From the NCBI RefSeq assembly GCF_008843165.1, contig NZ_CP044427.1, positions 1,116,001-1,180,000 of the forward strand: 64,000 nucleotides of DNA. Direction: 5' to 3'. Made by a program: the position numbers and the translations under genes. The DNA comes from Ornithinimicrobium pratense (GTDB lineage Bacteria > Actinomycetota > Actinomycetes > Actinomycetales > Dermatophilaceae). The stretch's first letter is position 1; each line of letters begins with the position of its first letter. The notes below the pieces were generated by a model that did not search any database, was not told the origin of the DNA, and was given only the letters and a program-made list of their open reading frames with translations. Shown piece by piece: positions 3,856-33,394 of this stretch.

Positions 3856-5037
3856 CCCCCGCCCGCAGGACGCCGGTCGGCCGGACGCCCGCCGTCCCGA
3901 CGATGCGCAGGACGTCGGCCGGCCGGACGCCTGGGGGAGGACGCCGGTGCGCAGGGCGGCCCCCGGCAGCAGGACCCCTACGCGCCGGGCTTCCACCCGG
4001 ACGCGCCGCCGCGCAAGCTGGTCTCCGACGAGGTCGTCCTGGACGTCCAAGATCTGGTCAAGCACTTCCCGCAGACGCAGGGCATCATCTTCAAGCGCAC
4101 GGTGGGGCAGATCCGGGCCGTCGACGGCGTGAGCTTCCAGTTGCACAGGGGCGAGACCCTCGGCATCGTCGGCGAGTCCGGGTGCGGCAAGTCGACCCTG
4201 GCCAAGCTCCTCATGCGCCTGGAGATGCCGACCAGCGGGTCGGCCCACTTCCAGGGCAAGGACATCTACGGACTGTCCGGCTCGGCGCTGCGCAAGGTCC
4301 GCCGCAACATTCAGATCGTCTTCCAGGACCCCTACGCCTCCCTCAACCCGAGGATGACGGTCGGCGACATTGTCGGCGAGCCCTTCGACATCCACCCCGA
4401 GGTCGAGCCCAAGAGCGGGCGGCGCAGGCGGGTCCAGGAGCTGCTTGAGGTCGTCGGCCTCAGTCCTGAGCACATCAACCGCTACCCGCACCAGTTCTCC
4501 GGCGGGCAGCGGCAGCGGATCGGGATCGCCCGCGGCCTGGCGCTCAAGCCGGAGATCATCATCTGCGACGAGCCGGTCTCCGCGCTGGACGTCTCGGTGC
4601 AGGCGCAGGTGATGAACTTGCTGCAGAGCCTGCAGACCGAGTTCGGGCTGTCCTACATCTTCATCGCCCACGACCTGTCGGTGGTGCGGCACATCTCCGA
4701 CCGGGTCGGCGTCATGTACCTGGGCAAGATCGCCGAGCTCGGCACCGACACCCAGATCTACGAGCACCCCGCGCACCCCTACACCCAGGCGCTGCTCTCG
4801 GCCGTGCCGGTGCCCGACCCCTCGGTCCGCGGCCAGCGCGAGCAGATCATCTTGCAGGGTGACCCGCCCAGCCCGGCCAACATCCCCAGCGGCTGCCGCT
4901 TCCGCACCCGCTGCTGGAAGGCCCAGGACATCTGCGCCCAGGAGAGCCCCGAGCTCATCGTCCGTCCCGGCATCCAGCACCCCGCCGCCTGCCACTTCGC
5001 CCAGGTCCGCGAGGACGTGGTCGTCCACCACGACTGA
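3842..5037 (+). CDS. Peptide ABC transporter ATP-binding protein, DppF/OppF family, with apparent frameshift
   Basis: The body of the gene has Walker A GESGCGKST, signature FSGGQRQRI, Walker B IICDEPVSALD and the C-terminal cysteine motif (CRFRTRCW). Upstream of the GTG at 4102 the same frame stays protein-like back to about 3937 but offers no ATG or GTG. A GTG at 3842, 14 bp inside dppD and after GGAGGT, opens a frame that reads MTTPDPRPQDAG to DAWG and then loses sense at a run of five G (3933-3937). Adding one G joins the frames into 398 residues. So the gene is probably intact and the sequence has lost one base, or the gene is truly frameshifted at its variable N-terminus. Confidence 0.88.
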
Positions 5038-5102
5038 GCGCACGGTCGGCGGGCGACCGGGCGTGTGCTGTGCGGCGAGCGGGCGCGTCGTCTGCTTCGA
5101 AC

Positions 5103-5519
5103 TCACCCCAGGCTGCGGCGTAACCGGTCCGCGTAGTCGCTCGCTTCGCCCACGGCATACTTCACCCGCGGCCAGAAGAAGCCCCGCAGCCCGTCGCCCT
5201 TCGTGCGGGGCACCACGTGGACGTGCAGGTGCGGCACGGACTGGCTGACCACGTTGTTCATCGCCACGAACGAGCCCTGGGCACCGAGCGCTTCGCGCAC
5301 GGCCGCCGCGACGCAGCGTGCACCCGCAAACAAGGGCGCCACCAGGTGGTCGGGCAGCTCGGTCAAGGTGGGTATGTGGTCACGCGGCACCACCAGCACG
5401 TGCCCCTTGAAGACGGGCCGGGTGTCGAGGAAGGCCACGACGTCATCGGTGTCGAGCACGACCTCGGCCGGCTCGTCGCCGACGACGATGCGGCAGAAGA
5501 GGCAGGTCACCTCGTCCAC
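5103..5519 (-). CDS. HIT family protein (histidine triad hydrolase)
   Basis: 138 residues from the GTG at 5519. The N-terminus CLFCRIV is the typical HIT zinc-site opening, and the histidine triad is visible near residue 95 as HLHVHVV. The family hydrolyses nucleoside phosphoramidates, dinucleoside polyphosphates and related AMP conjugates in the cytoplasm. The gene is convergent with the peptide transporter operon and divergent from the FUSC gene. The frame stays open far upstream, but that portion is antisense to the FUSC gene and has no HIT similarity. Confidence 0.92.
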   Translation of the reverse strand: MDEVTCLFCRIVVGDEPAEVVLDTDDVVAFLDTRPVFKGHVLVVPRDHIPTLTELPDHLVAPLFAGARCVAAAVREALGAQGSFVAMNNVVSQSVPHLHVHVVPRTKGDGLRGFFWPRVKYAVGEASDYADRLRRSLG

Positions 5520-5654
5520 GGTACTTCCCGCCCGGCTTCGCACGCGTCCGGTTCGGCACAACGTTGCCCTCGTTCGCCGGAGACCGCGCGTCCGGATCGG
5601 TTCACCCACCACGGCAGGCGACGCAGACGGTGTGGTTGGTGTCAGGATGGACGG

Positions 5655-31901: not shown

Positions 31902-31914
31902 GCTGGCCTTGGTG

Positions 31915-32337
31915 TCAGGCCTTGAGTGATCCCGGGTGAGCCCGCGTGACCAGTACGGGCATGGAGGCGTCGAGCACGACTCGTTGGACTGTGCTGCCCA
32001 TCAGGAACTTGCCCACCCGACTGCGCGGCTTCTGGCCGATGATCAGGATGGACGCGCCGGCCTGCACGGCCAGGTCCAGCAGCGCGCCGGCCACATCGCC
32101 GCCGGCGCCGACGACCTCGAGCCGCCAGTCGAGGTCAGCGGGTGCCCCTAGCTCGTTGAGCTGGCTGCGCACCTGCTCCAGGTAGTGGTCCCGGTGCAGC
32201 GGGTCCTGCGCGTCGTCAGCATCCTTGGCGACGTGCAGGACGACCAGGGGCTCCGACCGGAAACCGCATTCGGTCATCGCCAACTCCAAGGCGGCTGCGC
32301 CCGCCTCGGTCATGCTGTGCGCCACGGCAACCGACAT
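31915..32337 (-). CDS. Universal stress protein, UspA family
   Basis: About 140 residues from ATG 32337 (an upstream GTG at 32355 is possible). The C-terminal nucleotide-binding signature G-2X-G-9X-G(S/T) shows as LIIGQKPRSRVGKFLMGST, and VLVTRAHPG closes the fold. The domain binds ATP in many relatives and acts in stress adaptation. It is divergent from the tctCBA operon across 56 bp. Confidence 0.88.
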   Translation of the reverse strand: MSVAVAHSMTEAGAAALELAMTECGFRSEPLVVLHVAKDADDAQDPLHRDHYLEQVRSQLNELGAPADLDWRLEVVGAGGDVAGALLDLAVQAGASILIIGQKPRSRVGKFLMGSTVQRVVLDASMPVLVTRAHPGSLKA

Positions 32338-32393
32338 CCGATTGGCTCCCGACACCTAGTCCTGTAGTTGCAAACAACCGTAGTCTAAGGACC

Positions 32394-33394
32394 GTGAAAC
32401 GCCAACGGAGCTGGGTGCGATATACGGGTGTCGTCGCCGCCCTCGTGCTCACTGGATTCGCGGTCGTCGACGCCCGCACGTCGGATGTGGGTCAGCAAGC
32501 GAGGACGTCGTTGACGATCATCGCGCCAGCTGCAGCCGGTGGCGGTTGGGACCTGGTCGCCCGCGAGTCTCAGCAGGCCCTGCGCGAGGACGGCATCGCT
32601 AACACGGTCAAGGTGGTCAACATCCCCGGTGCCGGTGGCACGATCGGCCTGAGCCGACTCGTCGGCCTGGAGGGCGACCCGGCCACGATCATGGTCATGG
32701 GCACGGTGATGCTCGGCGGCATCACCCAAGGTGGGGGAGCGACCACCTTGCAGGACGTCACACCGGTCAGCCGCCTGGCCGAGGACTTCGAGGTCATCGC
32801 GGTCCCGGCCGACTCCGACTTCCAGACCCTCGACGACCTGTTGCAGACGTGGGCGGCCGATCCGGGGTCCCTGCCCATCGGTGGTGGGTCGGCCGGTGGC
32901 ATCGACCACATGGTGGCTGCGCAACTCGCACAGGTTGCCGGGGTCCCTGCGGCGGACCTGCGCTACACCGCGCACGCCGGCGGTGGCGAGTTGACCATCT
33001 CACTGCTTTCGACCGCCGAGGGGACGGTTGGCGTGGGTGTCAGCGGCTTCAACGACTTCCGTGACCTCATCGAGGACGGGCAGCTGCGTGCGCTCGCGGT
33101 CGTGGCGCCGGAGCCGCTCGAGGGGGTCGACGCCCCGACGATGATCGAACTGGGCTACCCCGAAGTCGACCTGGTCAACTGGCGTGGCATCGTCGCTCCC
33201 CCGGGGATCTCCGAGGAGGAGCGTCAGGAGCTGGTCGACATGGTCGCTGAGATGGTGGAGACCGAGTCGTGGGGGACGCGGTCGAGCGCAACCGGTGGGT
33301 TGAGAATCCGGCCTCCGGAGAGGAGTTCGAGGACTTCCTCATCAACGAACAGGAACGGATCGATGCACTGCTAGAAGAGTTGGGGCTTTCATGA
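32394..33394 (+). CDS. tctC: Tripartite tricarboxylate transporter binding protein TctC, with apparent frameshift
   Basis: From GTG 32394 an N-terminal export signal (VVAALVLTGFAVVDA) leads into IIAPAAAGGGWDLVARESQ and VVNIPGAGGTIGL, classic TctC/BugT motifs for ligand binding. Near the end, at a G5 run (33271-33275), the frame switches: the downstream frame reads DAVERNRWVENPASGEEF and ends LLEELGLS at 33394, overlapping the tctB start by 4 bp. One extra G gives 333 residues, the normal length. The gene is most likely intact and the base missed. It binds citrate-like or other carboxylates outside the cell. Confidence 0.9.

What the first reader, a model, noticed from the sequence alone, without database searches (positions are those of the whole stretch)
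3933..33275. Five frameshifts each repaired by one base in a G or C run
dppF (G5, 3933-3937), the adenylyltransferase-like gene (C4, 24472-24475), the methyltransferase (C4, 25074-25077), a decayed EEP gene (G5, 28778-28782) and tctC (G5, 33271-33275) all switch frame exactly at a G or C run and would read through with one extra base. Independent mutations would not be expected to be all contractions in such runs. A systematic homopolymer undercount in the assembly is the simplest reading, so dppF, tctC and perhaps the two transferase genes are likely intact.
Basis: partly seen in the sequence, partly recalled or inferred. Interest (0 to 1): 0.7.

Follow-up and report, generated by a model that had tools for sequence, protein, structure and literature searches.

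The report
Undercounted G/C runs plus decayed genes
Two of the five broken genes look whole but miscounted at a run of G in this soil bacterium's assembly, which shows such short counts elsewhere too, while two of the genes in the middle are real wreckage beside jumping elements; this is ordinary.

Summary
The window lies in a 3,539,411-base genome whose length equals that published for Ornithinimicrobium pratense. Against O. sufpigmenti (G002), 18 junctions in 17 genes of a 1.04 Mb sample break the frame; 13 lack one base, and 12 of these leave a G/C run of 4-6. The reverse comparison showed no contracted run. The deficit rises with run length: 0/4460, 3/1287, 7/184 and 2/12 for lengths 4-7. 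The gaps fall on codon position 3 (13 of 13, 9 informative), as expected if a run, not a random base, is short. dppF (G5 against G6 in the relative) and tctC fit, so systematic undercount is their likeliest reading. It does not cover the whole finding. The methyltransferase break is shared by a second, 96% identical copy, is best placed upstream of the named C4, and is followed by another break. The EEP gene has three frame changes and no N-terminal match. Both are real remnants. The adenylyltransferase-like gene is undecided. True -1 slippage, in a genome without a detectable MutS, remains possible; only reads can exclude it.

The parts
3842..5037 (+). dppF: GTG start overlapping the end of dppD; frame changes at G5 3933-3937; ABC_tran and oligo_HPY domains
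   Evidence: the relative's database protein P0123 starts at the same place
3933..3937 (+). G5 run, G6 in O. sufpigmenti
24240..24727 (-). interrupted aminoglycoside adenylyltransferase-like gene (PF10706 on the first piece only), frame change near 24467-24476
   Evidence: pieces searched apart
24779..25379 (+). class I methyltransferase remnant: frame change best placed at about 25061-25062 (upstream of C4 25074-25077) and another near 25212
   Evidence: family from the relative L125
25667..26961 (.). IS3-like element (rve integrase), identical inverted copy at 59131-60425
28481..29094 (+). decayed EEP-family gene: frame changes near 28634-28644, at or near G5 28778-28782, and near 29016; first 77 residues of relative L204 unmatched
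32394..33394 (+). tctC: frame changes at G5 33271-33275; the downstream frame ends in a TGA (33392-33394) that overlaps the tctB ATG (33391)
33391..33927 (+). tctB
33878..35434 (+). tctA (longest ORF; the codon-usage call starts at 33929)
6815..64000 (.). part inside the window of a stretch of about 60 kb absent at this place in O. sufpigmenti; sites 2-5 lie in it, dppF outside

Best explanation
Two causes are mixed. (1) The sequence of this genome counts some G/C runs one base short, mostly runs of six or seven; this is most likely a residual consensus error, and dppF and tctC are then intact in the strain. The middle break of the EEP gene may be of this kind too. (2) The methyltransferase and EEP genes lie in an IS-rich acquired region and carry several independent lesions, so they are real remnants. 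Shown: the excess in the sample, its one-sidedness, its run-length dependence, and the lesions of the remnants. Inferred: that the excess arises in sequencing and not in the cell, and that the window's genes follow the pattern of the sample.
For: Reciprocal comparison over 1.044 Mb against 1.020 Mb: of 805 O. sufpigmenti genes (305 without match, 17 weak, 448 full, 12 with a stop, 5 partial), 18 are split in the window's genome; of 842 genes the other way (340 without match, 20 weak, 464 full, 10 with a stop, 4 partial), 4 are split. One of the 18 (1240553) is non-collinear and was dropped; two of the 4 mirror breaks of the window's genome. The 17 kept genes have 18 junctions: 13 lack one base, 12 of these leaving G/C runs of 4-6. 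13 against 0 gives p = 0.0002; contracted runs of 6-7 are 9 of 196 against 0 of 168, p = 0.004. 13 of 13 gaps at codon position 3, of which 9 are informative. The 18 split genes keep near-normal constraint: median ratio 0.28 against 0.24 for 395 intact genes, one-sided p = 0.065. Alignments with a stop are balanced, 12 against 10 (not inspected one by one). The three best tctC proteins of the listed 120, 90, 85 and 83% identical, keep the C-terminal piece in frame. Methyltransferase and EEP lesions.
Against: In 9 of the 12 run cases the relative has no unbroken run of the longer length, so the original length is inferred. No broken gene is one that I recognise as essential (a PASTA kinase loses only its last part; 4 of the 17 genes were given no family), although an error should hit essential genes too. 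Neither species has a detectable MutS, which makes true slippage plausible. The published coverage is high, 380x, and the platform of this assembly was not found. Runs of 12 and 16 G are written out in the window, and the density of six-base runs is hardly lower than in the relative, 2.99 against 3.27 per 10 kb. There is one relative, and the tests were chosen after seeing the pattern.
Confidence: 0.7

Rival explanations
1. The one-base losses are real: DNA polymerase slippage at G/C runs, unrepaired in an actinobacterium with NucS but no detectable MutS, recently inactivated or switched off these genes.
For: NucS family found in both genomes, MutS family in neither; mycobacteria show length-dependent -1 and +1 frameshifts in runs, and NucS does not correct them (PMC10159617, passages and one section seen). 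No recognised essential gene is among the broken ones.
Against: The sister genome also lacks a detectable MutS, yet no contracted run was seen in it; 13 losses against two small gains (+1, +2) among the 18 junctions; genes under strong constraint such as pyruvate phosphate dikinase are hit.
Confidence: 0.18
2. All five are one artefact.
For: dppF and tctC fit; the adenylyltransferase-like frame change includes its named run.
Against: The methyltransferase lesion is shared by a 96% identical second copy that has CCCG in place of the C4; EEP has three frame changes, one of net -2 or +1.
Confidence: 0.05
3. All five are independent, ordinary pseudogenes.
For: Four of five lie in an IS-rich acquired region.
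Against: dppF lies in the conserved backbone at average constraint (percentile 0.47), and the run-linked excess was seen in this genome only.
Confidence: 0.07

Closest known systems
Residual homopolymer deletions in long-read bacterial assemblies (gene-fragmenting errors; PMC12007338, passages seen)
   Same: Mostly one-base deletions in runs, scattered over the sampled genome; here also rising with run length
   Different: Platform of this assembly not found; no reads examined; the sister PacBio/HGAP4 assembly showed no contracted run in the sample
Run-length frameshifting in mycobacteria without MutS/L (PMC10159617, passages and one section seen)
   Same: Runs of one base, length dependence, NucS present and MutS not detected
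   Different: Losses strongly exceed gains here, runs are short, and the sister species shows none in the sample
IS-associated gene remnants in acquired regions (general knowledge)
   Same: Several lesions per gene, missing N-terminal part in one, IS elements nearby
   Different: Nothing notable

Membership tests
homopolymer undercount artefact | deficits concentrated in homopolymer runs | tested here: met
   12 of 13 one-base losses leave a G/C run of 4-6, the other is CC to C; G/C runs of 4 or more hold 4.8% of coding bases
homopolymer undercount artefact | frequency rises with run length | tested here: met
   1/68677, 0/17117, 0/4460, 3/1287, 7/184, 2/12 for lengths 2-7, lengths partly inferred
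homopolymer undercount artefact | specific to one assembly | tested here: met
   no contracted run among the 4 splits of the reverse comparison, in one relative
homopolymer undercount artefact | accurate reads disagree with the assembly | not testable with these tools
   no reads available
homopolymer undercount artefact | hits genes regardless of constraint, essential ones included | tested here: inconclusive
   constraint percentiles of the split genes spread from 0.07 to 0.96, but none of the 13 genes of 17 that got a family is recognised as essential; 4 were not assigned
true slippage or phase variation | gains as well as losses of run length | tested here: inconclusive
   among 18 junctions 13 losses, one +1 at T, one +2 at a C run, three complex or unresolved; one further +1 at a C run only in the smaller sample: strongly biased to losses, but not without gains
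true slippage or phase variation | run length varies between cells of the strain | not testable with these tools
   needs reads or colonies
decayed gene (methyltransferase, EEP) | more than one inactivating lesion | tested here: met
   two and three frame changes
decayed gene (adenylyltransferase-like) | more than one inactivating lesion | tested here: inconclusive
   one frame change seen; not read through

The most novel reading that the evidence does not exclude
The losses are real: O. pratense carries a recent genome-wide burst of -1 slippage at G/C runs of five to seven, a natural -1 frameshift mutator or a reversible switching-off of many genes in a bacterium without detectable MutS.
Probability: 0.17. 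Interest if true: 0.6.

Novelty: not a real feature. Interest (0 to 1): 0.22.

Why it matters
A type-strain genome is a reference for its species. If nearly 3% of its conserved genes (13 one-base losses against about 480 matched genes in the sample) look broken only because runs are miscounted, gene-content comparisons and pseudogene counts for this species are wrong. If the losses are real, the strain is a test case for slippage without MutS.

Tried and rejected
Paired counting of runs with identical flanks found few differences and missed dppF, so gene-level comparison was used instead. A first gene finder called antisense ORFs and was replaced. A guess that the genus is Georgenia was dropped (one search found no paper; and the genome lengths point to Ornithinimicrobium). 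A low density of six-base runs as a sign of undercount was not seen clearly: 2.99 against 3.27 per 10 kb. Direct repeats of 12 bases or more at the ends of the 60-kb stretch were not found in a short scan. The second piece of the adenylyltransferase-like gene matched no Pfam family at E 0.01.

Full report
Identity. The window is G000:C1:1116001-1180000 of a one-contig genome of 3,539,411 bases. Table 1 of PMC9973731 lists exactly this length for O. pratense GDMCC 1.1391T (=W204T), from soil, 380x coverage, and 4,169,359 bases, the length of G002, for O. sufpigmenti HY006T, sequenced with PacBio and HGAP4 at 240x; the paper gives 87.4% nucleotide identity between the two (passages and one section seen). 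The identity rests on these lengths and on the label of the G002 protein P0123, 'unclassified Ornithinimicrobium', on a contig of that length.

Observation. The five runs are as written. dppF starts at GTG 3842, overlapping the end of dppD; the frame leaves at G5 3933-3937, where O. sufpigmenti has G6. The window also has a 42-base in-frame difference there. The downstream dppF frame has no ATG, GTG or TTG between its last stop and 4102. tctC changes frame at G5; in 27 of 37 other loci the second piece matched, always in the frame of the first (10 gave no match at E 1). The downstream frame ends in a TGA overlapping the tctB ATG, an arrangement expected of an intact operon (general knowledge). 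The three best proteins of the listed 120, 90, 85 and 83% identical, keep the C-terminal piece.

The other three. The methyltransferase has two frame changes. In the 9 relatives examined (L125-L133, of 19 fetched; four alignments printed) all three pieces share one frame. The downstream-frame piece already aligns before the C4 (from its first residue in 8 of 9, from its sixth in L132), which places the first break best at about 25061-25062. A second copy, 96% identical over 385 columns, at G000:1615885-1616268, has the same first frame change with CCCG in place of C4, and lacks the second break. So the first lesion is older than the duplication and not a miscounted C4 of the window. The EEP gene matches relative L204 from residue 78 only, in frames that change three times. 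The first break is one base short, with CCC as the longest run between the matching codons; the second fits the named G5; the third is net -2 or +1. The adenylyltransferase-like gene has one frame change whose zone includes the named run; L146 holds both pieces in one frame, 1 of 18 loci. It was not read through.

Genome-sample test. Genes called in 1.044 Mb of this genome and 1.020 Mb of G002 were compared both ways. G002 genes in this genome: 805, of which 305 no match, 17 weak, 448 full, 18 split, 12 with a stop, 5 partial. The reverse: 842, of which 340 no match, 20 weak, 464 full, 4 split, 10 with a stop, 4 partial. One of the 18 was dropped because its pieces are out of order (1240553). 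Of the 4, two mirror breaks of this genome (169865 by its alignment; -179527 by its coordinates), one (297701) lies among large 5' differences, and one (77162) is a single-base difference without a contracted run, leaving one or two. The 18 junctions in 17 genes: 13 lack one base, one gains T, one has +2 at a C run, three are complex or unresolved. A further +1 at a C run was seen only in the smaller sample. Of the 13, 12 leave a G/C run of 4-6 and one is CC to C. In 9 of the 12 the relative has no unbroken run of the longer length, but in all 13 the gap falls on codon position 3 of the relative. This is expected if a synonymous change had made a longer run here and one base of that run is missing, and not if arbitrary bases were deleted. 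In the four unbroken runs the gap placement is arbitrary, so the test rests on nine; and an aligner favours columns that differ, which third positions do most often.

Rates by inferred length are 1/68677 (2), 0/17117 (3), 0/4460 (4), 3/1287 (5), 7/184 (6), 2/12 (7), against none of 4446, 1272, 161 and 7 for lengths 4-7 in G002. The 18 split genes, the dropped one included, show near-normal constraint (median 0.28 against 0.24 in 395 intact genes, one-sided p = 0.065), so the losses are very recent or not real. They include pyruvate phosphate dikinase, a PASTA kinase, a DEDD exonuclease, a sirtuin-like deacetylase and transporters; 4 of the 17 genes were not given a family (two without a match, one searched only in part, one not searched).

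Error or slippage. Long-read errors are mostly short indels at homopolymers (PMC12007338, passages). Mycobacteria without MutS/L show length-dependent -1 and +1 frameshifts (PMC10159617, passages and one section). Both Ornithinimicrobium genomes have NucS and no detectable MutS, so this does not explain the difference between them; the one-sided losses and the clean sister favour error. No gene that I recognise as essential is broken, and the platform is unknown, so slippage keeps about one chance in six.

Place. dppF lies in backbone shared with G002; window 6815 to about 66980 is absent there. That stretch has lower G+C (0.67 against 0.71 for the whole sample), two IS110-type transposases and two identical IS3-type copies, a fitting place for the remnants.

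Noticed in passing
42221-42236: Run of 16 G about 270 bases upstream of a GntR-type regulator with an ABC transporter gene further on; a possible length-variable tract, or an uncertain count.
   Followed up: partly
17418-17429: Run of 12 G in the acquired stretch.
   Followed up: no
6815-64000 (to about 66980 beyond the window): Stretch of about 60 kb absent from O. sufpigmenti at this place, with IS110 and IS3-type elements and the only TctC match of the genome.
   Followed up: partly
25667-26961 and 59131-60425: Identical inverted copies of an IS3-like element, 1295 bases.
   Followed up: yes
24899-25282: Second, 96% identical methyltransferase remnant elsewhere in the genome (G000:1615885-1616268), sharing one frame change.
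   Followed up: yes
3850-3935: Low-complexity, repeat-like N-terminal leader of dppF, 42 bases longer than in the relative.
   Followed up: partly
18755-18848: ARAGORN tRNA-Val call inside an oxidoreductase ORF; probably false.
   Followed up: no
53387-57700: Large subtilase with three cell-wall-binding (CWB2) matches in the acquired stretch.
   Followed up: no
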